Shown here: positions 41,278 to 52,283 of the stretch, piece after piece
Position numbering within the stretch: position 1 is the first letter of the stretch
Layout: each line of letters opens with the position of its first letter
Assembly: GCA_017553035.1 (NCBI GenBank)
Contig: JAFZNE010000092.1
Span: 52,460-116,459 of the forward strand
DNA: 64,000 bases
Reading direction: 5' to 3'
Source of the DNA: Lachnospiraceae bacterium
GTDB lineage: Bacteria; Bacillota; Clostridia; Lachnospirales; Lachnospiraceae
Translations under genes and position numbers: made by a program
The notes under the pieces: generated by a model
What the model saw: the letters and a program-made list of their open reading frames with translations, nothing else
What the model was told of the DNA's origin: nothing
The model's database searches: none

Positions 41278-41742
41278 TTAATACCAGTAACGATAGTATC
41301 TGCCGAGACTTCCGAGCTGTGATGCCGCCGTAAGGCAGATGATCGTGTAGATCGATGATAAGACTATTCCGATAATTCCGGTAACGGTTCCGGCAACAAA
41401 GAATCCTTTACATCTGGGAAGGCGTGCCTTATGCTTTCCGGCGAGTACCAACGCCACGATACCAAGCACTATGCAGGGGATCGAAGTGAAGAAAGGAACC
41501 CACCACATGGAAACCGAGCATATTCCGAGTATCATACAGGTGATCGCAGGTCCGGGTTTCTGATTCGAAGGTGCTCTGTACTGCGGATTCTGCTGATATC
41601 CCTGATTCGGTACGCCGTTATACTGCTGGTTGGTATACTGGCTGTTGTAATTCTGGTTGTAGCTGCTCTGATTGTAACTGCTCTGAGCATTCTGATTGTT
41701 CTGGTTGTTCTGATAACTGTTCTGATACTGATTGTCGCTCAT
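41278..41742 (-). CDS. Small Asn/Gln-rich membrane protein, DUF4190-like
   Basis: This 154-residue protein starts with about 65 residues very rich in Asn, Gln, Tyr and Ser, probably a disordered cytosolic tail. Two hydrophobic helices follow (SMWWVPFFTSIPCIVLGIVALVLAG and FFVAGTVTGIIGIVLSSIYTIICL), a pattern seen in DUF4190-type proteins. The start at 41742 overlaps the stop of the acyltransferase gene by ATGA, and AGGAGG lies 6 bases upstream. It is the last gene of the lipid cluster; the role is unknown. Confidence 0.7.
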   Translation of the reverse strand: MSDNQYQNSYQNNQNNQNAQSSYNQSSYNQNYNSQYTNQQYNGVPNQGYQQNPQYRAPSNQKPGPAITCMILGICSVSMWWVPFFTSIPCIVLGIVALVLAGKHKARLPRCKGFFVAGTVTGIIGIVLSSIYTIICLTAASQLGSLGRYYRYWY

Positions 41743-42332
41743 ACACATCCTCCTGTTTTTTTGTCGGAAAGCATTATTATCTTTTTCCGAAGTTTTTGAT
41801 TTATTATTTCAATTTCCTTAGCGTCCGCCAGACCGTTTATCCCTATTTTCATGGGTTTCCCAAATGTTATCGCGGTTCCTCCCCTGAAGAAAGGGGCGGT
41901 ACGGATATACACCGGTACGATCGGAAGTCCCGACGTCAACGCCAGCATTACTGCTCCGCTTTTAAAACTGCCAACACTGCTTTTTATCATTCCCTCCGGG
42001 AAAAAACTTATCAGCTCATAATTTTTTATATTTCTGACTATTTCATTCAGCGTCTCCATGTCGCCCGAAGGAGAAAGTCTCGGGCGGCATCCCATCTGTT
42101 TAAGTTCCCATTGGTGCAGTCTGTTGCAATTAAAGAGCTTTTTGGTCGTCAGCATGTAGATCCGCTTGAACGGAAATGCCACATTAATCAGGACCGGATC
42201 CATAGCCGCGCCATGATTGACGGCAAGAATGCAGGGAGTCTTGGGAACATTCTTCTTTCCTCTGATCCTCGGCCTGAAAAATAAGGCCAGGGGGATCACC
42301 GCCGTCAGTTTAAATAACCATACAAACAGCAT
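41739..42332 (-). CDS. PlsC-type acyltransferase
   Basis: This 197-residue protein has an N-terminal hydrophobic segment and the glycerolipid acyltransferase motifs: HxxxxD as NHGAAMD near residues 39-45, FFPEGM near 109-114 and VPVYI near 139. It should transfer an acyl group to a lysolipid or related acceptor at the inner face of the membrane. It is short compared with housekeeping PlsC (about 240). It follows the transporter gene by 2 bases and overlaps the next gene, as part of the 41278-50258 operon. Confidence 0.88.
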   Translation of the reverse strand: MLFVWLFKLTAVIPLALFFRPRIRGKKNVPKTPCILAVNHGAAMDPVLINVAFPFKRIYMLTTKKLFNCNRLHQWELKQMGCRPRLSPSGDMETLNEIVRNIKNYELISFFPEGMIKSSVGSFKSGAVMLALTSGLPIVPVYIRTAPFFRGGTAITFGKPMKIGINGLADAKEIEIINQKLRKKIIMLSDKKTGGCV

Positions 42333-42334
42333 TT

Positions 42335-43699
42335 TTAATCATCCTTCTCGGCAATACCGTCGTGCGGCATCCTGAACGAACAGACAAAAGCAAGGATCAT
42401 CATAATGCCTGCAAGTACAGGTACCAGGAAGAACTGTCCTCCCTCCTTTCCGAACACTTTAACAGGTGTCGCCACAAGGTTCATGTAGATCAGATTGACC
42501 GCGATCGCGCTTGCGAGCTGGGTAATAAGACCCTGAACGGCAAAATACATTGCGGAGTGGTCGAGATTCTTTTCCCTGATCTCGCGTGCCGCTATCTGTG
42601 ACGGATAGTAATAGGTTGATGAGAAGAATACGCCTACCGCATAGCTTCCGATCGTTGATGCGGTAATTCCGATAAGGAAGCAGATCATCTGGCTTCCCCA
42701 GAGATTCTTCCATGCTGCCGCAAAGGTAAACATAGCCAGGGCAAAAGCAAGGACTGCAGTCTGAAGTGCGAATCTCTCACCTTTTTTCTTCTTGATATGG
42801 TTAAACAGAAGAAGCATCAACGGTACCGGTGCAAATGCAGCGGAATTCATGACTGTTACCTGCCAGCCTTTTATTCCCATCAGACTGTCCGGGATCGTGG
42901 TTCCGATACCGGTCAGGAACAACATCAGACCCATATGCATAACCAGCAGAACGATCAGCCAGGACACGAAATTCTTATTTTTGAAAGAAAGTCTGATACT
43001 CTCGGTAATGGGGATCTCACGGCCTGCTTTTTCTTCGCTGTCGTCCTCTTTTATCAATGCTACGGCGATCAGCATGGTCAGCATCAGCGGAGCCAGTTTA
43101 AGCAGTGCCGATGAAACCGCGCCCGTATCCTTGCCGCCGAGAAGCGAAAGCAGCAGCGAAGGGAACAGCGCATATGCGAAACAATACTGAACGGTGTCAA
43201 AGAAAGCTTTGAAATGAGAAAGCCTCATTCCTGCCTTTGCATCCTCGACGATGGTTGCAAATGAACCGTAATATGATACCAGGCACAAAGTATAGCTGCA
43301 ATAGAAGATTATCAGCAGGATCGCTTCGATGATCGTCGTTGCGACCGGTCCGGCCGACGAGAAGATCGTAGGCATCCAAAGCAGGATAAAGGAGATGGTC
43401 ATGGGGATCCATCCGATCAGGATACCCAGCCTTCTGCGGCCAAACTTCGTATGCATCCTGTCATTGATATATGCCAGGGGTACATCGATAAAGGCATCAA
43501 TAATCTTTGCCACAAAGAACAGAACACTGCAAAGACCCGCCGAAACAATGATCGTTCCGGTAAATGTCTTTGCCGGTGAAATGTCCTCCGGCGCCAGTAA
43601 CGCATCATTCAGATATCCCGTTACGAGCGTCATCATCAGATTGGGGCCTAAGCCCGCCATGGAAAACAAAAACAGTTTCCACCCTTTCAGTTTTTTCAT
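42335..43699 (-). CDS. MFS/GPH-family membrane transporter
   Basis: This 454-residue protein has about twelve hydrophobic helices. The cytoplasmic loop DRMHTKFGRRRLGILIGW matches the loop 2-3 signature of the GPH (glycoside-pentoside-hexuronide) branch of MFS transporters. The position between an acyltransferase gene and an acyl-carrier fusion, rather than near sugar genes, suggests a lipid, lysolipid or lipid head-group substrate, as with LplT beside Aas in Enterobacteria. This is inference. Its ATG overlaps the preceding stop by ATGA. Confidence 0.85.
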   Translation of the reverse strand: MKKLKGWKLFLFSMAGLGPNLMMTLVTGYLNDALLAPEDISPAKTFTGTIIVSAGLCSVLFFVAKIIDAFIDVPLAYINDRMHTKFGRRRLGILIGWIPMTISFILLWMPTIFSSAGPVATTIIEAILLIIFYCSYTLCLVSYYGSFATIVEDAKAGMRLSHFKAFFDTVQYCFAYALFPSLLLSLLGGKDTGAVSSALLKLAPLMLTMLIAVALIKEDDSEEKAGREIPITESIRLSFKNKNFVSWLIVLLVMHMGLMLFLTGIGTTIPDSLMGIKGWQVTVMNSAAFAPVPLMLLLFNHIKKKKGERFALQTAVLAFALAMFTFAAAWKNLWGSQMICFLIGITASTIGSYAVGVFFSSTYYYPSQIAAREIREKNLDHSAMYFAVQGLITQLASAIAVNLIYMNLVATPVKVFGKEGGQFFLVPVLAGIMMILAFVCSFRMPHDGIAEKDD

Positions 43700-45303
43700 T
43701 CTTTTATCACCTCATTTGCTCCATTAATTTTATATGATCTGAGCGTTTCCGCCGCAAATCTCACAGTTGCGAAGAACATGCCGTCATCCGGTCTGACTTT
43801 GATTCCGAACATGACCTCGATATGCCTGAGCAACAGAAAATACGTCAGGCTGTCACCGCCGAGGTCGGTGAAGAAATCCATATCATCATCGATGATCTCA
43901 GCCGGCTTGTTGAGTACGATGCTGTATGCTTCCTTAACTTTTTCAAGCACTCCGGGATCCGGTTTCATCCTGGTTCCCGCGTTCGGGTTCTCGTTTTTTT
44001 CAAGGCTTATGCAGCCATCTCTGTCTATAGTCGCTTTTATCCTGGTTACCAAAGGGAATCCGAATTCACCTGTTCCTTCTGCCGTATATTTCCGGCCGGG
44101 ATTTGTGACGCCGGTCAGTTCCAGATATCCTTCAGGTCCGCATTGTCCGACAACTCCGTTCAGAAGCCGTCCGACACTGTTCTTCTTTCTCATTTCATGG
44201 TCCGGGTTCAGATCCATGGCAGTCAGGCCCGCTTCGGACGTACAAAGACATCTGCTGAAAGGCACACCGAGCTGGCTCATAAATGAAACGACCGTATCAT
44301 TGATCTGGTTATCCCCGCTTATGATACAGCATGAATGTCTGCCGAAAAACATTTTTTTCATCTTTATGGACATATTCAGGAACCTTGATAAGATCCGGTA
44401 ATCGTTGACTTTTCCGGTTCCCTTGAGCCATGCCGTATATTTGGGAGCTTCTCTCGTAAATGCTCTCTCGATCTTCCAGGTAATGAGCCCGGCCAGTTCC
44501 TGGCTGTCCTTTCCCGACAGACAGTAAACGTTGATCCCGAGGCTTCTGCCCGTCATTATATATTGAACCATTCCGCATCCGGGTTTCGGAATATTGATCT
44601 CATACCCGTAACAAGGATAAACGATCACTCCCGTGATAAATCCGAAGAGATCGGAAAAAGGCAGTTTCAGCGAAGCTTTTCTGTTGAAAGGAGAAAGTAT
44701 CTTCTGCTCTTCTTTGTAAACGTATCTCAAACGCAGAAGCTGTTCACTTACAGACACTCCGTTATGTGCGACAAGGCGGAAATCACCGTTTACGTCCTCA
44801 TCTACGAACAGCGTTTCATCTTCCCATGAACTGTCAAAATACGCCAGATCCGTCTCAAACCTGCTGCCCTTCAATATCTCGGGTGCAATGCGGAAGGGGT
44901 ATTTCTTATCCTTTGTAATGATATAAATGCCCCTGCATTCCTTTATGTTCCTGTACATAAAGAGATCACTGCGGCTGTTTATGATAACCGGTATATGACC
45001 CGACATAAGTATCGCCCAGTAAAAAACTGGCCAAAGATGATGGTTGGGCAGGTGCAGGCCTACCATTTTCGAATTCGGTGGGATGATGTCGACCAGCATT
45101 CTGGCAACCGCAGCAACATTATGTGCGAACAGATCCCTGCGCAGTTTTACGATCCTGCCGTTTTCTTCCCAGGAGTAGATGATCCTGTTTTTATCTTCGG
45201 TAATGATATTAAACAGATCATGCATGGTCCGCCCGGAATCTGTGACGGAATCACAAATATCCGTAATAAATCCGCAGGCTTCCTGCCACTCTCTGATATG
45301 CAT
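43696..45303 (-). CDS. Degenerate adenylation-like domain fused to an acyl carrier domain
   Basis: This 535-residue protein has an adenylate-forming-enzyme-like body (about 30-430). It lacks the phosphate-binding TSGTTGxPKG motif, the YRTGD motif and the C-terminal catalytic Lys region. Relics remain (LHLPNHHLWPVFYWAILMSG, CIISGDNQIND). The C-terminus is a complete acyl carrier domain with the phosphopantetheine attachment Ser in FFTDLGGDSLTY near residue 490. The start at 45303 is chosen for the GGGAG 9 bases upstream. It may be a non-catalytic carrier or docking protein within the lipid cluster. The frame is intact, so decay is not the explanation. Confidence 0.75.
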   Translation of the reverse strand: MHIREWQEACGFITDICDSVTDSGRTMHDLFNIITEDKNRIIYSWEENGRIVKLRRDLFAHNVAAVARMLVDIIPPNSKMVGLHLPNHHLWPVFYWAILMSGHIPVIINSRSDLFMYRNIKECRGIYIITKDKKYPFRIAPEILKGSRFETDLAYFDSSWEDETLFVDEDVNGDFRLVAHNGVSVSEQLLRLRYVYKEEQKILSPFNRKASLKLPFSDLFGFITGVIVYPCYGYEINIPKPGCGMVQYIMTGRSLGINVYCLSGKDSQELAGLITWKIERAFTREAPKYTAWLKGTGKVNDYRILSRFLNMSIKMKKMFFGRHSCCIISGDNQINDTVVSFMSQLGVPFSRCLCTSEAGLTAMDLNPDHEMRKKNSVGRLLNGVVGQCGPEGYLELTGVTNPGRKYTAEGTGEFGFPLVTRIKATIDRDGCISLEKNENPNAGTRMKPDPGVLEKVKEAYSIVLNKPAEIIDDDMDFFTDLGGDSLTYFLLLRHIEVMFGIKVRPDDGMFFATVRFAAETLRSYKINGANEVIKE

Positions 45304-45327
45304 CTGACTACTCTCCCGTAAATCTAT

Positions 45328-45348
45328 CGAACGAATACAATTCGTTCG
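45328..45348. promoter_or_regulatory. Perfect hairpin between ACP and the fusion gene
   Basis: The arms CGAACGAAT and ATTCGTTCG form a perfect 9-base stem with a 3-base loop in the 55-base gap of an otherwise tightly packed operon. No T-run follows, so it may be an mRNA processing, stabilising or operator site rather than a terminator. Confidence 0.5.
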
Positions 45349-45358
45349 CTTATTATAA

Positions 45359-45601
45359 TTACAATTTTCCTTCGATATACCGGCATACATCGCCGACAGT
45401 CTCGAGCTTTGAAGTATCCATACTGTCAAAATGGATACTGAATACCTTTTCGGACTGCATTGCCATCATAAGCATAAACAATGAATCCATTCCAAGATCT
45501 TCGATCAGGCGTGTATCTTCGTTTATCAGCGCAAGATCCGCGTCAGGCCTTAACAGTTTCATGATATCTTTCAGATTTGCCAGTATTTCCTCATGCTTCA
45601 T
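45359..45601 (-). CDS. Acyl carrier protein
   Basis: This 80-residue protein is a stand-alone acyl carrier protein with the DSL phosphopantetheine site in EDLGMDSLFMLMM (Ser near residue 40). The sequence diverges from housekeeping AcpP, so it is probably dedicated to this pathway. Its start overlaps the end of the ligase gene by 11 bases, so the two should be co-translated, with the ligase loading this carrier. Confidence 0.9.
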   Translation of the reverse strand: MKHEEILANLKDIMKLLRPDADLALINEDTRLIEDLGMDSLFMLMMAMQSEKVFSIHFDSMDTSKLETVGDVCRYIEGKL

Positions 45602-47057
45602 GATAATCTCTCCTGATCTTCATCGCCGAGGTCCTCGGGAAATCTTCATTTCTGAACTTAACCTGTCTTATCCTTGAGAATTCCGGCAGATCAAGATTGA
45701 TCATATCGACGGCCTGTTCCAGCTTTTTCCTGTCTGCTGCCGGATCTGCGAAAAGTTCGCCGACCAGCAGCTGGGCACCGAACTTGTTCTTCTCGGAATA
45801 TACAAGCGACGCCTTAACACCCGGGATCTTATCCAATCTTGCCTCTATCTGCTCGGGGCATATCTTTTCCCCATTAGAACAGTATATCAGATTTTTGATC
45901 CTTCCGGTAATATAAATATATCCGTCCTCGTCCATATATCCGAGATCGCCCGTCCTGAACCAGCCGTCATCAAATGAAGCTTTCGTCTCCTCGGGATTGT
46001 TGATATATTCGATGAAAATATTATCGCCTTTGATCTGGATCTCGCGATCCACAAAACGGATCTCTTCGAATCCGTATAATTTACCGACAGAACCCTCTTT
46101 TTTCAGAAGATCGATGCTTCCGCTCACCAGATTCGCGGTTTCGGTCAGTCCGTATCCGCTTACAAAACAGATCCCGAATTGTTCGATGAAAATACGCGCT
46201 ATCTCCGTCGGCTGGGGTGCTCCGCCGGTAACGATGGTCTTCAGTTCTCCTCCGAATACTCCCGGGCCGTACAGTTTGGCGAGATTGAGAAGCATTCCCG
46301 CCAGAGCCGGGATCAGGATCAGTATTGTGGGCTTATATTCCTTAAGATCATCCACAAGCCTGTTCATATCCGAACAGGGCCTTATCCGGCTGCCCGATGC
46401 GAAGCATGAAAGCAGGTTCCTTACGGTTCCGAAAATATGTGAAAACGGTATCAGACCATAGTATTTCTGATAGAATGAATTACCGGGTGCAAAAATGCCG
46501 TTATATGTTCCGGTCATCAGCGCTTTATTCGAAAGAAGAGCGCACTTGAGTGTTCCGCTCGTTCCGCCCGTGAAAAATGCGGCAACAGGATCCCCTGGCT
46601 CGAGTTTCGCGGCAGGTGTTCCTTCCTTCCCCGCAGCCTGTGTTATATCAAAGATCTCGATATTGTTTAGTTTTTCTCCCGCAAATGCCCTGGTGCATCC
46701 GGCTACCCGGCATGCTTCCTCTTTCGCGGCGGCAGGACCTGCGGGCTGTACCATTACGGCAACCGCACCATATGTCGTTACCGCGAGGAATGCCTCTATC
46801 GCTTCGATACTGTTGGGATAGATCACCGCGATCTTCTCCCCCTTCCGGACATTCTTTTCAAGCAGGAAGGTCCTTATCGAGCCGACTTCGGTCCACATTT
46901 CCCGATAACTGAGGATCCTCTCGGGAGTATCGATCGCAGGCAGATCGGTAAAATGTTTCAGACAGTATTCCTCAAGTTCACTCATTGTGAAAAGCCGGAC
47001 AAGGATCTTTTTCTCCTCTTCCGTCATCATATTTTCGAAATACTCGCTGTTATACAT
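45591..47057 (-). CDS. Acyl-CoA/acyl-ACP ligase (ANL superfamily)
   Basis: This 488-residue adenylate-forming enzyme has a glycine-rich phosphate loop FFTGGTSGTLK, the YGLTETAN motif, WFRTGDLGY and GRIKNLIYCSNGEKICPEQIE. The C-terminal catalytic Lys is in PRTSAMKIRR. These features fit activation of a fatty or other carboxylic acid as an acyl-adenylate and transfer to a carrier. The overlapping downstream ACP gene is the likely acceptor. It starts 1 base after the double acyltransferase gene. Substrate chain length cannot be read from sequence. Confidence 0.88.
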   Translation of the reverse strand: MYNSEYFENMMTEEEKKILVRLFTMSELEEYCLKHFTDLPAIDTPERILSYREMWTEVGSIRTFLLEKNVRKGEKIAVIYPNSIEAIEAFLAVTTYGAVAVMVQPAGPAAAKEEACRVAGCTRAFAGEKLNNIEIFDITQAAGKEGTPAAKLEPGDPVAAFFTGGTSGTLKCALLSNKALMTGTYNGIFAPGNSFYQKYYGLIPFSHIFGTVRNLLSCFASGSRIRPCSDMNRLVDDLKEYKPTILILIPALAGMLLNLAKLYGPGVFGGELKTIVTGGAPQPTEIARIFIEQFGICFVSGYGLTETANLVSGSIDLLKKEGSVGKLYGFEEIRFVDREIQIKGDNIFIEYINNPEETKASFDDGWFRTGDLGYMDEDGYIYITGRIKNLIYCSNGEKICPEQIEARLDKIPGVKASLVYSEKNKFGAQLLVGELFADPAADRKKLEQAVDMINLDLPEFSRIRQVKFRNEDFPRTSAMKIRRDYHEA

Positions 47058-47058
47058 A

Positions 47059-48330
47059 TCATTCGCCTCCGTCCGATAACTTTTTCAAACCTTCGATCTC
47101 ATGATACAGCAGGTCAGTCATATTTCTGACATTCTCCATGGTCATGCTTCCCTGCGGGCTTATCTTTTTGCCTATCCAGATATCTCTTCCTTTTCTTCTG
47201 AACATTTTTCCGCGTTTTGAAATATAAACCGGAATAATGTCCACATTGCCTGTATATGCGGCCAGCACGATCCCCGATTTAAAGGGTTTGAGCTCGTCTT
47301 CCCCGCTCAGTCCGCCCTCGGGAAATATTCCCACGCTCTCATTGTGTTCGAGAACAGACTGCATGATATGAAATGCCTCCATATCAAGTATATTTCTGTC
47401 GATCCTGATACATCCGCAGCGCCTCAGCAGAACGCCGAGCATGCGGTGTTCGTATAAAGTCTCGCTCGCAAGGATATGCAGCTTGAGCTTCGGAAACAGC
47501 ATGCACAGAAGCGGAGGATCGTATGTACTGATATGGTTGGAAGCTACGATACAGGCCCCTGTACAGCTTTTCCTGTCATCTGCCCCGTCCGCATAATGTA
47601 CCTTGAACGGGTATGCTATGCGCATTCCTATCCTCATGCTCCATCCCGTGAACCAGGTTATGAGCGAATGTTCTTTATACGCCGAGCGGAACTTGAGTTC
47701 TTCCTTCAGCCGTTCCATCTTCTGCTTCAGAAAGGCATTTGCTGCCGCAACCCTGTCCATTTCGGTTCCGGCTCCGAACATCGAACACAGGTCAACCGGA
47801 TCTCCCACCATCATATGCGAACGCCTGAACAGATGTCCTACCGTATGAAAATAAACCGGACGAACCTTTGCCCCGGTACACAGCGCAAGATATGCCGCCC
47901 CGTGGCTGAACGGAAGCATTGGTCCGTATTCCCTGCCTTCTTTGTTTAACCTTCCTTCCGGAAATACACCGACGATGCCGCCTTCATTCAATGTCTGTAT
48001 AGCTTCTGCCAACCTGTCATCGCCATTCGTAAGATATCTGTCGACTTTTATTCCGCGAAGATGTCTGAAAAACCAGGCCATCAACGGACGTTTGAACAGG
48101 ACTTCCGCCATAAGGACACGGATCGTCCTGAACGGATGAACATACAGCATCATGGCAAAATCCATCATCGTTGTATGATTGGCTATCAGTATCTCTCCGG
48201 TTTTTACGGATCTTGTTTTTTTAACTTTCTGCTTTTTATTCTCATGATACACTGCCGGTTTATACCAGACAAGGAACGGGAGAACTCCGGTTATCTTAAC
48301 AAACCACAGAAGCAGGTTTTTCATTTTCAA
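47059..48330 (-). CDS. Tandem double PlsC-domain acyltransferase
   Basis: This 423-residue protein contains two complete PlsC-type acyltransferase domains. The first has NHTTMMD (51-57) and FPEGRLN, the second NHISTYD (about 260) and FPEGGLSG. Each is about 190-200 residues. Such a fusion could acylate two positions of one acceptor or use one domain as a regulatory copy. It overlaps the upstream ligase-ACP gene by ATGA and precedes the second ligase by 1 base. It is an unusual architecture for Clostridia. Confidence 0.87.
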   Translation of the reverse strand: MKMKNLLLWFVKITGVLPFLVWYKPAVYHENKKQKVKKTRSVKTGEILIANHTTMMDFAMMLYVHPFRTIRVLMAEVLFKRPLMAWFFRHLRGIKVDRYLTNGDDRLAEAIQTLNEGGIVGVFPEGRLNKEGREYGPMLPFSHGAAYLALCTGAKVRPVYFHTVGHLFRRSHMMVGDPVDLCSMFGAGTEMDRVAAANAFLKQKMERLKEELKFRSAYKEHSLITWFTGWSMRIGMRIAYPFKVHYADGADDRKSCTGACIVASNHISTYDPPLLCMLFPKLKLHILASETLYEHRMLGVLLRRCGCIRIDRNILDMEAFHIMQSVLEHNESVGIFPEGGLSGEDELKPFKSGIVLAAYTGNVDIIPVYISKRGKMFRRKGRDIWIGKKISPQGSMTMENVRNMTDLLYHEIEGLKKLSDGGE

Positions 48331-50258
48331 GTCCCCTCATTGTTCCGATTGATAACTTCTTTTATAACTTCAGCAGCAGAAACGGGATTGGCAAATCTCA
48401 GCGCCAGTTCGCGCGGGATCGTGATCCCGAATCTTGTCTCAATGGTATTGAGAAACTCTATATATCTTAAACTGTCTCCGCCGAGATCGGAGAAAAAGCT
48501 GCTGTTGACACTCACGTCTTCTTTCTTCAGAACTTCCTTCATGATAGACGCGATCTCGAGGGCAAGCTCCTCCTGCTCTCCGTCTCTGGCTTTGATTCCC
48601 GCGGGAGGAAGGAATTCATCCTTGGTGAAGACCTTGAAAGAACCTTCTTCGATTATTTCCGCTATATACTTTCTGCGATATTTGTGACTCAGCGAAACCG
48701 GGATATCCTCATAGGTATACAGGACATGTCCGGGTCTCAATCCGGTATTCAAACCGTTCAGAGCCTCTTCGGTCTCCTTTACCGCAGCTTCTTTTTTCGC
48801 AAATGAGAACTTCGCGTCTGACGGAACCTGCACAAGTAAAGTAAGTCCTTTTTGCTTCAAGCCTATCGCACAGCATGTAAGACTCATCTTCAGTTCGGTC
48901 TCAACAGCCTCAAGGCTTATCCTTTCACCGTTGGCACCGTTTATCAGGTCATCCGTACGTCCGATTATCGTAAGTTCCCCATCGTCAGCCATCGCAAAAC
49001 TGTCGCCGGTCGATATCCATTCATCCTTATTTCTGAGGATCCTCACGCCATCCTTATAGCTTGCCTCATAGCACGAATCTCCTTTGATAAGGAGCTGTCC
49101 TTCGTTGTCGATCTTCGCCTCGAGAGACGGGAAAAGCCTGCCGACCGTAGTACAGTCCCTGCGGCTTGCCTTCTTGTGAAGAGTTACGCAGGCGATACCT
49201 ATCTCGGTCATCCCGTAACCGTTTTCAAGATGATATCCGCATCCGTTGACAATACGGCCCGTATCCTTACCACAGGCCCCGCCGCCGCTGATACAGAACT
49301 GTACGGCAGGTCCCAGTGTTTTATCACGAACACTCTTCATGATCTTCGGGACAATGCTCCTTGCAAGATGCGGAAAGTTGTCCTGAAGTTTAAGGCTCAA
49401 TGAAATTCCTTTTTCAAGTTTCGCGGTCTGTCCCGTCTTCTCCGCCTCGGCTGTGATCCCCTTTGCAAGCATATCCCATAGAAGAGGGATGGCAAATATA
49501 TGGGTCACTTTATGCGTCCTGCATGTATTGAGGATGGTTGACGGTGCATAATCATTCAGGAATACAAAGGTCCTTCCGAATAGTGTAAACCACAGATAAC
49601 ATGCGGTCAACCCGAAAATATGGCAAAACGGAAGGAAGGCAAGTAGCCTGAACTGCCCCTTCCAAAATCTCGAGACATCTTTACAATGTTGTAATACATA
49701 CCCGCTGTTCAGTATCTGGGCACATATCTGACGGCCTGTATAAGAATAAAGGACCGGTTCGCCGGTAGTTGCCGAAGTAGACAGGATGATCTCGTCTCCC
49801 CAGCCTGATTCCGGTTCATCCGCAGGAGCTTCGGAAGGTAGTTCCTTCTCCAGTCGCGATATTTCTATATTCGTACAATCCTCGGCCTTTCTGTCACCCA
49901 GGATAAACCTGCAGCCGCTGTCCTTAATACATCCGGCGAGCATCGAATCCGTCATATCCTCCGACAGAGGCATTACCTTGCACCCTGCCATCAGTATGGC
50001 CCAAAAACACTCCACCCACAAAGGGGAATTCTTCATGATCAGGGCAACTATCTGTCCCTGCACGGCATGTTCTTTCACCAGCCCGCAGATCCTTAAGATC
50101 TCTTTTCTGCATGCACTGTAGGTTACTTTACGTATTGCGGTTCCGACACTGTATTCAAAGGCTGTTTCATCAGAGAAGGCAAAAGCGTGCCTGTATACGG
50201 TCCGCATCGAATGCTCCTCGGATTCCAGCTCCAATAAGATCTTCTCGTAGAATTTCAT
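48327..50258 (-). CDS. Acyl-activating ligase fused to acyl carrier domain
   Basis: This 643-residue protein begins with an adenylate-forming domain. The phosphate loop is LSTSATTGEP near 157-166, NGYGMTEIG and WISTGDSFAM are present, and the catalytic Lys is in SLSHKYRRKY near 530. It ends with an acyl carrier domain (about 565-640) with the Ser in FFSDLGGDSLRY. It could self-load an acyl group onto its own carrier, as in AMP-ligase/ACP didomains of lipid and polyketide pathways. It is the first gene of the minus-strand lipid operon, behind its own promoter. Confidence 0.88.
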   Translation of the reverse strand: MKFYEKILLELESEEHSMRTVYRHAFAFSDETAFEYSVGTAIRKVTYSACRKEILRICGLVKEHAVQGQIVALIMKNSPLWVECFWAILMAGCKVMPLSEDMTDSMLAGCIKDSGCRFILGDRKAEDCTNIEISRLEKELPSEAPADEPESGWGDEIILSTSATTGEPVLYSYTGRQICAQILNSGYVLQHCKDVSRFWKGQFRLLAFLPFCHIFGLTACYLWFTLFGRTFVFLNDYAPSTILNTCRTHKVTHIFAIPLLWDMLAKGITAEAEKTGQTAKLEKGISLSLKLQDNFPHLARSIVPKIMKSVRDKTLGPAVQFCISGGGACGKDTGRIVNGCGYHLENGYGMTEIGIACVTLHKKASRRDCTTVGRLFPSLEAKIDNEGQLLIKGDSCYEASYKDGVRILRNKDEWISTGDSFAMADDGELTIIGRTDDLINGANGERISLEAVETELKMSLTCCAIGLKQKGLTLLVQVPSDAKFSFAKKEAAVKETEEALNGLNTGLRPGHVLYTYEDIPVSLSHKYRRKYIAEIIEEGSFKVFTKDEFLPPAGIKARDGEQEELALEIASIMKEVLKKEDVSVNSSFFSDLGGDSLRYIEFLNTIETRFGITIPRELALRFANPVSAAEVIKEVINRNNEGT

Positions 50259-50332
50259 TACTGTTCAAATATCCTTTCAGATACTAGCCGGATCTCATCA
50301 CACGAAGTAGTAATGAAAACCGCCTAATAAAG

Positions 50333-50361
50333 ATACTACCATAACTGCATAAACAATTCAA
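50333..50361 (-). promoter_or_regulatory. Promoter of the lipid operon
   Basis: On the minus strand TTGAAT (complement of 50356-50361) and TAGTAT (complement of 50333-50338) are 17 bases apart, about 70 bases before the ligase-ACP start. It is divergent from the GNAT promoter 16 bases away, so the two transcripts may share regulation. Confidence 0.55.
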
Positions 50362-50376
50362 TAGAAAAGGAAAGCA

Positions 50377-50405
50377 TTGCATTTATCATGTTTTTATGCT
50401 AACAT
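50377..50405 (+). promoter_or_regulatory. Promoter of the GNAT-PAP2 operon
   Basis: TTGCAT (50377-50382) and TAACAT (50400-50405) are separated by 17 bases and lie 33 bases before the start codon. Confidence 0.6.
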
Positions 50406-50438
50406 TTTTCATGAAGCAGGCATAACAGTGAGGTTTAT

Positions 50439-51563
50439 ATGATAACTATAAAACAAGTCGAAACAAAAAAAGAGCAGCGTGAATTTGTCCGTTTTCCTCT
50501 CGATCTTTACAAGGGAAACAAGTACTATGTTCCCATGATGTATGGGGGAGAATTTGACATTTTCAAACCAGACTACCCTTTTAACAAGATCTGCGATACC
50601 GTATGCTTCCTGGCTTATCGCGATGGCAAGGTCGTTGGCCGCCTGCATGGGATCATCCAGAATGATGCCAATAAAAAATGGAACCGCAAGCAGGCGCGTT
50701 TCACCCGTTTTGACTCCATAGATGATGAAAGTGTATCAAAAGCATTATTCGAGAGTTTCGAAAAATGGGCCGCGGAACATGGTATGGAGGAAATGATCGG
50801 ACCGCTCGGTTTCAGTGACTTTGAACGTGAAGGCCTTCTTATCGACGGTTTCGAGACATTGCAGACTTATGAAGAACAGTACAATTATCCCTATTATCAA
50901 AAGCTGATCGAAGCATACGGGTTTGATAAAGATGTGGATTGGCTGGAATACAAGCTTTTTGCTTCCGAAGAGACCGAAGACAAGCTTTTTGCGCTGAGCG
51001 AGAAACTTATGAAACGTTTCGGTCTTACATCCCATCAGGCCGGATCGACCCGCGAACTGATAGACAAATATATTTATAAGCTTCTTCATATCATAGAAGA
51101 GGCCTATTCTCCTTTATACGGAACAGTTCCGCTTAATCAGGAAACCATCGAATATTACATTAAAGATTTCAAAACGCTCGTGCGTCCTCAGGACGTAATT
51201 ACACTTCACGACAAAGATGATAATGTAGTAGCCGCAGGAATGATGTTTCCTTCGATCTCGGATGCCGTAAGGCTGTCCCGCGGACATATTACACCTGCAT
51301 TCCTTTACAGATTCCTTCGCGCAAAAAAGCACCCGAAGGTGCTGGATCTGGGACTTATCGGAGTCACCCCAGAATATGAGTCAAAAGGCATCGTTGCGAT
51401 ACTTATCGGGATCCTGATAGACAGGCTTCGCAACAAAGGAGTCGAGCATCTGGAAACAAATCTGATCCTTGAAGATAATGTCAAAATGCATAATCTGCTC
51501 AAACATTTTAACAAGCAGTACAGCAAGCGCAGAAGGTGCTTCAAAAAAACGGTAGCACTATAA
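50439..51563 (+). CDS. YghO-like GNAT-fold acyltransferase
   Basis: This 374-residue protein follows the YghO-like pattern: REFVRFPLDLYKGNKYYVP near the N-terminus, GRLHGIIQN, IGPLGFSDFEREGLLIDGF and YNYPYYQKLIEAYGF, then a C-terminal GNAT-like acetyl/acyl-CoA domain (DLGLIGVTPEYESKGI). From memory, relatives include enzymes thought to N-acylate long-chain bases in bacterial sphingolipid synthesis, but no serine palmitoyltransferase is in this window. It is divergent from the lipid operon and co-transcribed with a PAP2-family gene. It may be an acyltransferase for the same lipid. GAGG precedes the ATG. Confidence 0.75.
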   Translation: MITIKQVETKKEQREFVRFPLDLYKGNKYYVPMMYGGEFDIFKPDYPFNKICDTVCFLAYRDGKVVGRLHGIIQNDANKKWNRKQARFTRFDSIDDESVSKALFESFEKWAAEHGMEEMIGPLGFSDFEREGLLIDGFETLQTYEEQYNYPYYQKLIEAYGFDKDVDWLEYKLFASEETEDKLFALSEKLMKRFGLTSHQAGSTRELIDKYIYKLLHIIEEAYSPLYGTVPLNQETIEYYIKDFKTLVRPQDVITLHDKDDNVVAAGMMFPSISDAVRLSRGHITPAFLYRFLRAKKHPKVLDLGLIGVTPEYESKGIVAILIGILIDRLRNKGVEHLETNLILEDNVKMHNLLKHFNKQYSKRRRCFKKTVAL

Positions 51564-51575
51564 AAGAGGTGGGAT

Positions 51576-52283
51576 ATGTGGTCGGATCTTAAAGAAGATT
51601 GGGCATATAAGGAATTCCGATTTAACCGGATCAGGGAAAAGCAATACCGTCACCTGTTTCTGCTCCTGTACTGGCCGTTTTTTCTGGTAGCTTTTTTCGT
51701 AGTGGAAAGAATGGCATACAATGGCGGATATACGGCGATCCATTGCGCACTTGATGACAAGATCCCGTTTTGCGAATATTTTATCATACCTTATGTCATA
51801 TGGTATCCGTTCTGGGTGTTTATGCTTTTGTATGCGGTAGGATTTGAGATACCGGTCTTCATCAGGTTCAGTAAATACCTTATGATCACGCTCACTTTGT
51901 CTCTGATCATTTATATCGTATGGCCGACAGGCCAGGACATGTGGCCCGAGGTATTTCCCCGCAATAATTTCTTCACCTGGCTTACAGGCCTGATCTATAC
52001 GGCCGATACCAATACGAACGTCTGCCCGTCCGAACATGTTTCAACCGCGTTCGGTACCGTTTTTGCGGCAATGGCTTCGAAACGTTTTTCTGCGAGTAAG
52101 AAGTGGATGATCTTCTTCTGGACTGAAGCGGTCTTCGTTGCTCTTTCGGTTGCATTCGTCAAACAGCATTCCGTGCTGGACGTCGCAGCGGCGGTACCTA
52201 TAATCCTGATCGGGTATTTTGCGGCATTTTGGAGGAAGAAAAACGGGACTTATATCAATGATAAGTCTCATACAGTTCCGTAA
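51576..52283 (+). CDS. PAP2-family membrane phosphatase/transferase
   Basis: This 235-residue protein has about six membrane helices and PAP2 motifs: CPSEHVSTAFG near residues 149-159 and KQHSVLDV near 203-210. The SEH rather than SGH variant and the KQHSxxD form resemble the PAP2_3 branch, which includes inositol-phosphoryl-transferases as well as phosphatidate phosphatases. It begins 12 bases after the GNAT gene with GAGGTGGG upstream. Its 3' end overlaps the convergent WYL gene by 29 bases. A lipid phosphate substrate is likely. Confidence 0.85.
   Translation: MWSDLKEDWAYKEFRFNRIREKQYRHLFLLLYWPFFLVAFFVVERMAYNGGYTAIHCALDDKIPFCEYFIIPYVIWYPFWVFMLLYAVGFEIPVFIRFSKYLMITLTLSLIIYIVWPTGQDMWPEVFPRNNFFTWLTGLIYTADTNTNVCPSEHVSTAFGTVFAAMASKRFSASKKWMIFFWTEAVFVALSVAFVKQHSVLDVAAAVPIILIGYFAAFWRKKNGTYINDKSHTVP

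What the first reader, a model, noticed from the sequence alone, without database searches (positions are those of the whole stretch)
41278..52283. Putative undescribed lipid acylation/remodelling system built from ACPs, ligases, PlsC domains, a transporter, a YghO-like GNAT and a PAP2 protein
One tight minus-strand operon (overlaps of 4-11 bases) encodes two active-looking acyl-activating enzymes, a third dead-looking one, three acyl carrier domains, three PlsC domains on two proteins and an MFS/GPH transporter. Divergent, 16 bases between promoters, lie a GNAT-fold acyltransferase and a PAP2-family enzyme. All parts act on acyl chains or lipid phosphates. Together they recall the Aas/LplT lysophospholipid salvage pair and, in part, ceramide-type pathways, but no known system has this composition as far as I know.
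Basis: partly seen in the sequence, partly recalled or inferred. Interest (0 to 1): 0.85.

Follow-up and report, generated by a model that had tools for sequence, protein, structure and literature searches.

The report
Operon for re-acylating salvaged membrane lipids
A Clostridia-like bacterium carries a conserved gene cluster that probably loads fatty acids onto dedicated carrier proteins and attaches them to imported or partly stripped membrane lipids, which gives candidate genes for a poorly understood lipid-salvage step.

Summary
The genes are there as described, with corrections. Eight minus-strand genes (AL-ACP, tandem PlsC, AL, ACP, dead-looking AL-ACP, GPH/MFS_2 transporter, PlsC, DUF4190-like) form one tight run; a GNAT and a PAP2-like protein are divergent. 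The linkage is not chance: of 24 loci with a close AL-ACP relative that I read, PlsC genes lie in the same cluster in 22, and the other two contigs end inside the AL-ACP gene. Relatives add partners that point to the substrate: fatty acid kinase FakA in 15 of 24, alpha/beta-hydrolases in 13, a PLAAT-like LRAT-domain protein directly behind the ACP in 8, the transporter in 8, PlsX in 6. In four loci the LRAT protein continues into a phosphopantetheinyl transferase. Best reading: a lipid salvage and re-acylation pathway, a counterpart of LplT-Aas or of the genetically undefined bacterial GPC/lysoPC pathway, built from other parts. GNAT and PAP2 accompany it only in the window and one near relative (2 of 24) and are probably not core. 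A ceramide pathway is not supported in this genome. All activities are inferred; nothing was assayed.

The parts
48327..50258 (-). AL-ACP (P0008): acyl-activating enzyme fused to a C-terminal carrier domain; first gene of the operon and best marker of the system
   Evidence: Pfam AMP-binding 2.1e-43 and PP-binding 9.9e-11; 57% identical orthologue in G016; invariant lysine K526, YGMTE, TGD, GRTDD, DSL
47059..48330 (-). tandem PlsC-PlsC acyltransferase (P0007)
   Evidence: Pfam Acyltransferase 2.2e-42, two stretches; two HX4D and two FPEG motifs
45591..47057 (-). stand-alone acyl-activating enzyme (P0006), acyl-ACP synthetase candidate
   Evidence: Pfam AMP-binding 2.3e-46; best NCBIfam long-chain-fatty-acid--CoA ligase 2.3e-53, 181 bits against a cut-off of 476; intact motifs
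45359..45601 (-). free acyl carrier protein (P0005)
   Evidence: PP-binding 1.2e-05; DSL serine
43696..45303 (-). dead-looking AL domain fused to an intact carrier domain (P0004); start re-assigned to ATG 45303
   Evidence: three orthologues begin MHxxxWQ and keep GGDSL; P-loop, YGxTE and GR motifs not found; PP-binding 7.9e-09
42335..43699 (-). GPH/MFS_2 family transporter (P0003), candidate lysolipid or glycerophosphodiester carrier
   Evidence: Pfam MFS_2 1.2e-29; strong class hits of its family lie beside PlsC genes in 7 of 11 places, the window included
41739..42332 (-). third PlsC acyltransferase (P0002)
   Evidence: Pfam Acyltransferase 1.3e-18; HX4D and FPEG; 63% orthologue in the same position in G016
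41278..41748 (-). DUF4190-like small membrane protein (P0001), last gene
   Evidence: DUF4190 3.8e-08, 33.4 bits against a cut-off of 35; 54% orthologue in the same position in G016
   Evidence: full-length homologues at 39.6% (Bacteroides finegoldii) and 25.4% (an E. coli record); 81% orthologue beside AL-ACP in G018
51576..52283 (+). PAP2-like membrane protein (P0010); linkage seen only in the window and G018
   Evidence: weak PAP2 5e-05, below cut-off; PSEH and HSVLD motifs; 81% orthologue in G018
45328..45348 (.). 9-bp hairpin in the ACP/P0004 spacer (role unknown)
   Evidence: listed as a + strand terminator-like match

Best explanation
The operon encodes a fatty-acid-loading and lipid re-acylation pathway that runs beside the normal phospholipid route. 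Inferred steps: (1) the AL domains of P0008 and P0006 activate free fatty acids with ATP and load them onto dedicated phosphopantetheine carriers (the fused ACP of P0008, free P0005, and the carrier of P0004, whose ligase-like part would serve as a non-catalytic docking or storage subunit); (2) the GPH/MFS_2 carrier P0003 brings a lysolipid or a fully deacylated glycerophosphodiester to the inner face of the membrane; (3) the paired PlsC domains of P0007, with P0002, move the acyl chains from the carriers to that acceptor and restore a two-chain lipid. In relatives a supply of acyl chains is visible in the same cluster: a PLAAT-like LRAT protein or alpha/beta-hydrolases could release chains from lipids, and FakA/FakB with PlsX offer a second activation route. 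Shown here by sequence: gene identities, motifs, conserved linkage. Inferred: every substrate, the direction of transport and the order of steps.
For: Conserved core: 24 close AL-ACP loci read, PlsC in 22, the other 2 cut by contig ends. 19 of the 22 carry at least two PlsC domains, fused or separate. Lipid-related partners in the same clusters: FakA 15 of 24, FakB in the same 15, alpha/beta-hydrolase 13, LRAT 8, GPH 8, PlsX 6 (Pfam names from representatives). The LRAT protein of G016 matches PLA2G16/PLAAT3 structures over nearly the whole domain (best E 6.8e-11). The His of the HxGI motif and NCEHF are kept in the seven copies aligned and in the four LRAT-PPTase fusions. LRAT follows the ACP gene at -4 to +15 bases in all 9 loci found with it, including L142, which has no AL-ACP. 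Of eight cluster genomes searched for LRAT, two have it, each once and in this cluster. Strong class hits of the transporter family lie beside PlsC in 7 of 11 places (6 of 10 without the window), two of them with FakA/FakB but without AL-ACP. The window genome also has PlsY, a FakA and other PlsC genes elsewhere, so the operon is an addition to the basic route.
Against: The window operon has no LRAT, hydrolase, FakA/FakB or PlsX, and the window genome (84% complete) has no LRAT hit, so its acyl source is not visible. AMP-binding enzymes take many acids, and no tool here fixes the substrate. The GPH family's only solved relatives found are melibiose permeases, and 4 of 11 strong GPH hits are not near any gene of my query set; one of those contexts has a ROK protein and an amidohydrolase as neighbours (one of the four is a contig of only 5.5 kb). 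The PlsC tree leaves deep forks open, so the window's domains are not proven orthologues of the separate PlsC genes elsewhere. The distribution is patchy: a match of E 1.1e-80 or better in 4 of 24 genomes of the genus and E <= 1e-100 in 5 of 397 in the family sample. Nine of 24 loci have no FakA in the stretch read, though several of these are cut by contig ends.
Confidence: 0.6

Rival explanations
1. The operon makes one specialised acylated molecule (a glycolipid, lipopeptide-like or signalling lipid): the two ligase/carrier pairs activate two different acids and the PlsC domains build the product, which the GPH protein exports.
For: Two active-looking ligases of different type plus a third carrier exceed what simple salvage needs; the patchy distribution within the genus is typical of accessory pathways; the AL-ACP module is fused to an alpha-oxoamine synthase in family f108, so the same module can serve a biosynthetic enzyme.
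Against: No ketosynthase, condensation, glycosyltransferase or tailoring domain was found in the operon or in ten flanking proteins scanned; partners that recur in relatives are fatty acid kinase, PlsX, hydrolases and a phospholipase-like protein, which belong to lipid turnover.
Confidence: 0.2
2. The PlsC pair is an alternative first and second acylation of glycerol-3-phosphate that replaces or backs up PlsY.
For: Four of 18 cluster genomes have no PlsY hit, three of them at least 98% complete, and in those four the cluster FakA is the only FakA found; paired PlsC domains fit two successive acylations.
Against: In the order of G793 PlsY is missing in 48 of 51 genomes with an AL-ACP hit but also in 83 of 97 without (22 of the 51 are in family f108, whose fetched members are of the oxoamine-synthase type), so the loss is not tied to the cluster; the window genome and 13 other cluster genomes keep PlsY.
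Confidence: 0.1
3. A sphingolipid/ceramide-type pathway, with acyl-ACP synthetase, specialised ACP and a GNAT ceramide synthase, as in Rhodobacteria.
For: AasR/AcpR pairs feed SPT in Rhodobacteria (abstract of PMC9386255); AL-ACP is fused to an SPT/KBL-like domain in f108; the window has a GNAT beside the operon; an oxoamine-synthase hit of unknown type exists in G014 and G265 (37% and 35%).
Against: No such hit in G000, G016 or G018, nor in 9 others of the 15 genomes searched, at E 1e-15; the GNAT was seen in only 2 of 24 loci; PlsC domains are not part of that pathway (recalled). That the Caulobacter ceramide synthase is a GNAT-type protein is recalled, not tested.
Confidence: 0.05
4. Unrelated genes that happen to be neighbours.
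For: PlsC genes are common (51 matches in 9 genomes), as are AMP-binding genes (many weak hits).
Against: The same set recurs, largely in conserved order, across six families of the class.
Confidence: 0.02

Closest known systems
LplT-Aas lysophospholipid flipping and re-acylation (Gram-negative)
   Same: MFS transporter plus acyl-ACP synthetase plus PlsC-type acyltransferase, encoded together; LplT-Aas form a complex (PMC11416262, abstract and passages)
   Different: Different transporter family (GPH/MFS_2, not LplT); ligase fused to an ACP, not to PlsC; paired PlsC domains; two ligases and three carriers. PMC11416262 says LplT-Aas is identified only in Gram-negatives
FakA/FakB-PlsX exogenous fatty acid pathway (Firmicutes), with auxiliary ACP such as Enterococcus AcpB
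   Same: Fatty acid salvage into phospholipid through carriers; FakA/FakB lie in 15 of 24 clusters; pathway as in PMC6509188 (passages)
   Different: In the window FakA is not in the cluster; putative acyl-ACP synthetases and paired PlsC are added; no PlsY hit lies in the clusters read
GPC/lysoPC pathway of mitis streptococci
   Same: Uptake and one or two acylations of a glycerophosphodiester or lysolipid in Gram-positives (PMC6805115, passages)
   Different: Its transporters are unidentified and its acyltransferases still to be found according to that paper; no choline-lipid evidence exists here
AasR-AcpR-SPT of Rhodobacteria
   Same: A specialised acyl-ACP synthetase with its own ACP diverts free fatty acids into one lipid (PMC9386255, abstract)
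   Different: The acceptor enzyme here is PlsC, not SPT; an SPT/KBL-like fusion was seen only in family f108
PLAAT/LRAT phospholipase A-acyltransferases of animals
   Same: LRAT of G016 matches over nearly the whole domain, E 6.8e-11; catalytic His and NCEHF kept
   Different: Bacterial, next to ACP, in four loci continued by a phosphopantetheinyl transferase; not found in the window genome; the third residue, His in the LRAT family (PMC10318531, passage), is His in L021 and L022 but Q, E or A in the six other copies read
Lands cycle in bacteria (PlaF work)
   Same: Deacylation and re-acylation of phospholipids; the acyltransferase is stated as unknown (PMC9132575, passages)
   Different: Pseudomonas, a single phospholipase; the passages seen describe no operon of this kind

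Membership tests
LplT-Aas | Transporter of the LplT family | tested here: not met
   P0003 hits MFS_2 and GPH models, no LplT model at E <= 0.001
LplT-Aas | Aas fusion of PlsC and acyl-ACP synthetase (NCBIfam PRK08043/PRK08633 above cut-off) | tested here: not met
   PlsC proteins match only the PlsC part of PRK08633, 55 and 110 bits against a cut-off of 1221
LplT-Aas | Lysophospholipid transport and acylation activity | not testable with these tools
   no assay
FakA/FakB-PlsX pathway | FakA and FakB genes in the cluster | tested here: not met
   absent from the window operon; one FakA elsewhere in the genome; present in 15 of 24 related clusters
GPC/lysoPC pathway | Transporter plus two successive acylations of GPC to PC | not testable with these tools
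   paired PlsC and a transporter are present but the substrate cannot be tested
Ceramide/sphingolipid pathway | Serine palmitoyltransferase-like enzyme in the genome | tested here: not met
   no hit in G000 at E 1e-15; genome only 84% complete
Ceramide/sphingolipid pathway | Specialised ACP with its own acyl-ACP synthetase | tested here: inconclusive
   AL and ACP genes are adjacent but their specificity is untested
PlsC (1-acylglycerol-3-phosphate acyltransferase) superfamily | HX4D and xPEG motifs, PF01553 above cut-off | tested here: met
   P0002 67.5 bits, P0007 144.4 bits against 23; motifs in all three domains
GPH (MFS_2) transporters | PF13347 above cut-off | tested here: met
   103.5 bits against 27; but TIGR00792 (GPH cation symporter) only 56.6 against 231
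LRAT/PLAAT (in relatives, not in the window) | PF04970 above cut-off and catalytic Cys/His | tested here: met
   94.9, 89.8, 69.6 and 63.8 bits against 24.3 for L022, L021, L050, L123; catalytic His and NCEHF
LRAT/PLAAT (in relatives, not in the window) | Third catalytic His | tested here: inconclusive
   His in L021 and L022, other residues in the six other copies read

The most novel reading that the evidence does not exclude
The cluster is a complete bacterial Lands cycle in one operon: a PLAAT-like enzyme moves an acyl chain from a membrane phospholipid straight onto the phosphopantetheine arm of the dedicated ACP (a phospholipid:ACP transacylase, tuned by the fused phosphopantetheinyl transferase). 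The chain is then exchanged, stored or replaced by chains from the acyl-ACP synthetases and FakA/FakB-PlsX. The paired PlsC enzymes re-acylate the lysolipid that an MFSD2A-like GPH carrier returns. The window carries a reduced form that relies on free fatty acids.
Probability: 0.15. Interest if true: 0.92.

Novelty: new variant of a known kind. Interest (0 to 1): 0.74.

Why it matters
Mitis streptococci take up and acylate lysoPC and GPC, but the transporters are described as unidentified and the acyltransferases as still to be identified (PMC6805115, passages); LplT-Aas is reported only from Gram-negatives (PMC11416262, passages); and the acyltransferase of a bacterial Lands cycle is described as unknown (PMC9132575, passages). 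This cluster offers candidate genes for these kinds of steps in presumably clostridial bacteria and makes the question testable. The LRAT-PPTase fusion beside an ACP would be an unexpected enzyme if it works as it looks. Literature seen: searches returned no paper; 85 one unrelated paper (listing); 87 three, 88 seven and 100 two (listings, passages read in one of each); others returned 39, 97 and 113 papers, of which 20, 12 and 10 were listed. Nothing seen describes this gene set; papers outside the held library were not searched.

Tried and rejected
PlsY replacement: suggested, tested and not supported as a general rule (I take the two samples of 148 as the same genomes, since the handles shown agree). 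Ceramide pathway: tested, not supported in the window genome. PlsC orthology by tree: cluster PlsC domains fall into several supported groups, but deep forks are open, two long branches meet, and 5 of 14 intended comparison rows (L089, L092, L098, L100, L110) were dropped because the script found no suitable ORF, so no claim of orthology is built on it. The FPEG test in that script used a narrow pattern and missed variant spellings; it is not used. Promoter spacing of 16 bases: not found.

AL-type hits left out of the count of 24, with reasons: weak hits without PlsC (L054-L058; L025-L027; other weak hits were not fetched as wider stretches); secondary AL paralogues without neighbouring PlsC (L075, L082, L085); family f108 hits, 22 of the 51 genomes, of which 4 were fetched and are long proteins without neighbouring PlsC, with an oxoamine-synthase-like C-terminal part where I looked (L118, L119, L120, L124). 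G819 and the other f66 hits were not fetched. L142, L137 and L138 have no AL-ACP and are counted apart; in L138 FakA and PlsC each appear broken or in two open frames. Eight of the 24 loci (L077, L083, L086, L087, L121, L122, L123, L125) are from one genus and four (window, L022, L023, L024) from the window's genus, so they are not independent. Several loci are cut by contig ends (L021, L024, L051, L083 and others), so absences there say little. The tallies depend on my score thresholds; L024 shows 0 there for AL-ACP only because its gene is cut.

The genome-contig scan with P0007 gave one confirmed relative out of 14 candidate stretches; it reaches close relatives only.
Full report
What is there. 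The window lies in a 2.52 Mb, 84% complete genome (G000). On the minus strand, eight genes run from 50258 to 41278: AL-ACP (P0008), tandem PlsC (P0007), AL (P0006), ACP (P0005), dead-looking AL-ACP (P0004), GPH/MFS_2 transporter (P0003), PlsC (P0002) and a DUF4190-like membrane protein (P0001). Spacings are overlaps of 4, 11, 4 and 10 bases, gaps of 1 and 2 bases, and 55 bases before P0004 if that gene starts at ATG 45303, as its three aligned orthologues indicate. A 9-bp hairpin sits in that spacer. Divergently, with 180 bases between the start codons, lie a GNAT (P0009) and a PAP2-like protein (P0010). Flanking genes are of other kinds: WYL regulator, ferredoxin-type and redoxin proteins on one side, TM1266-like regulator and an NMT1-type transport protein on the other.

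Active or dead. P0006 keeps TGGTS, YGLTE, TGD and GRIK; P0008 keeps TSATT, YGMTE, TGD and GRTDD and an invariant lysine at what I take to be the A10 place (motif names recalled). In P0004 the P-loop, YGxTE and GR motifs are not found and its carrier begins about 110 residues earlier than that of P0008, so the C-terminal subdomain seems to be lost; the carrier serine is kept in all three orthologues. The ligase-like part is probably a non-catalytic holder for a live carrier. All three PlsC domains keep HX4D and FPEG.

Near relatives. G016 and a named metagenome contig (PITV01000125.1, 'Clostridiales bacterium isolate ZC3RG03') have the same genes in the same order as far as the contig goes (57% and, over the part present, 48% identity for AL-ACP; 77% and 74% for the transporter), with one insertion: an LRAT-domain gene between ACP and dead-looking AL-ACP. 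G018 (81% identity) is cut inside AL-ACP, but shows the divergent GNAT and PAP2. G014 of the same genus has a different version: Lgt, AL-ACP, PlsC, PlsC, AL, ACP, hydrolase, FakB (DegV), transporter, FakA, hydrolase.

Wider survey. AL-ACP queries were searched in 61 relatives, 397 genomes of the family (21 at E <= 1e-30, of which the 5 at E <= 1e-100 are true relatives), 392 of the order (2 at E <= 1e-60), 391 of the class (13 at E <= 1e-60) and 148 of the order of G793 (51 at E <= 1e-60). These samples overlap. I read the surroundings of 24 loci of the close type, from six families of the class and one named contig. Tally: PlsC 22 of 24, the other two contigs (L024, L083) ending inside the AL-ACP gene; at least two PlsC domains in 19 of those 22; FakA and FakB 15 of 24; alpha/beta-hydrolase 13; LRAT 8; GPH transporter 8; PlsX 6; phosphopantetheinyl transferase 5; dead-looking AL-ACP 3; Lgt 2; GNAT with PAP2 2. 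Hits that were left out, none of them with neighbouring PlsC in the stretches read, are listed under Tried and rejected.

The LRAT clue. The LRAT protein of G016 matches PLA2G16/PLAAT3 structures along nearly the whole domain (E 6.8e-11). The catalytic His and NCEHF are kept in the seven copies aligned and in the fusions; the third catalytic residue varies. LRAT follows the ACP gene at -4 to +15 bases in all 9 loci found with it, L142 included. In G122, G1216, G1227 and G945 the same protein continues into a phosphopantetheinyl transferase domain (Pfam ACPS shown for G122 and G1216; motifs, where the G1227 copy lacks the first motif as I wrote it). Of eight cluster genomes searched, two have LRAT, each once and in this cluster. 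PLAAT enzymes release or move acyl chains of glycerophospholipids (family knowledge; PMC10318531 describes LRATs as lipid-metabolising, passages). An enzyme of this kind beside an ACP points to lipid acyl chains as the cargo.

The transporter clue. A GPH profile finds 11 strong matches in 10 of 385 class genomes. Seven lie beside PlsC: the window, G811, G838, G945 (two places), G835 and G1030. G835 and G1030 have FakB-FakA-GPH-PlsC-hydrolase without AL-ACP (in G1030 FakA and PlsC appear broken or in two frames), and the second place in G945 has GPH-PlsC-PlsC-AL-ACP-LRAT/PPTase, the GPH standing where AL-ACP is elsewhere. Four are not near any gene of my query set. The only solved relatives found are melibiose permeases, at weak E-values (best 1.9e-05). 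That the vertebrate lysoPC carrier MFSD2A is of the same wider family is recalled and was not tested.

How it most likely works. Free fatty acids are loaded by two acyl-ACP synthetases on dedicated carriers; a lysolipid or deacylated glycerolipid is delivered by the GPH carrier; paired PlsC domains add the chains. Relatives could supply chains through LRAT or hydrolases and through FakA/FakB-PlsX. The pairing of PlsC domains fits two successive acylations and so leaves open a GPC-type pathway beside simple lysolipid repair. Since the genome has PlsY, FakA and other PlsC genes elsewhere, the operon adds to the basic pathway. Gene identity, motifs and linkage are shown; substrates, transport direction and order of steps are inferred.

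What argues against it. The window operon lacks the deacylase and kinase genes of its relatives, and its genome has no LRAT hit. The ligases' substrates cannot be read from sequence. The distribution is patchy: 4 of 24 genomes of the genus. In family f108 the same AL-ACP module is fused to an SPT/KBL-like oxoamine synthase, so the module can serve other acceptors, though a fatty acyl cargo would suit that too. PlsY is missing in much of one order, but independently of the cluster.

Comparison with what is known. The nearest analogue is LplT-Aas; membership fails on the transporter family and on the protein fusion. The cluster overlaps with the FakA/FakB-PlsX pathway in relatives but not in the window. 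PMC11416262 (abstract and passages) states that LplT-Aas is identified only in Gram-negatives and cites lysoPC uptake and acylation in streptococci; PMC6805115 (passages) leaves the transporters and acyltransferases of that activity open; PMC9132575 (passages) leaves the bacterial re-acylation step open. I rate this a new variant of a known kind: the job is known, and the gene set is not described in the papers I could see.

Noticed in passing
L118:6386-9829, L119:5005-8490, L120:5481-8813, L124:6209-9610: In family f108 the AL-ACP homologue lies in a 1110-1161 aa protein with a C-terminal alpha-oxoamine synthase (SPT/KBL-like) domain: a candidate one-protein fatty-acyl loading and condensing enzyme. 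Pfam was run on L120 only; L118 and L119 were judged by eye from the printed sequence and L124 by length.
   Followed up: partly
order of G793 (families f49, f66, f105, f108): PlsY (PF02660) is found in only 17 of 148 genomes, 10 of 103 among those at least 90% complete and at most 5% contaminated; how the others acylate glycerol-3-phosphate is unclear, and it is not explained by the cluster.
   Followed up: partly
L050:6135-7187, L123:2582-3595, L125:12229-13242, L142:2834-3847: LRAT domain continued by a phosphopantetheinyl transferase, directly behind an ACP gene.
   Followed up: partly
L142:6870-8711 and L143:7180-9129: GPH transporters with C-terminal extensions of unknown family (613 and 649 aa); Pfam sees only the MFS part.
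   Followed up: no
L087:341-2866 (similar ORFs at L086:4532-7057 and, cut, L121:2-2512): 841-aa fusion of a xylose-isomerase-like TIM barrel with a complete AMP-binding enzyme, near the FakA/PlsC cluster of genus g492 (Pfam on L087; the others by BLAST).
   Followed up: no
window 41262-41234 (-): Perfect sigma-70 type consensus (TTGACA, 17, TATAAT) just behind the operon, pointing towards the TM1266-like gene at 40971-40699.
   Followed up: no
L052:5890-10082: PlsX-FakA-FakB-FakB block divergent from hydrolase-AL-ACP-PlsC-PlsC-ACP in G167; its FakA (455 aa) matches the ends of a 553-aa FakA but not the middle.
   Followed up: no
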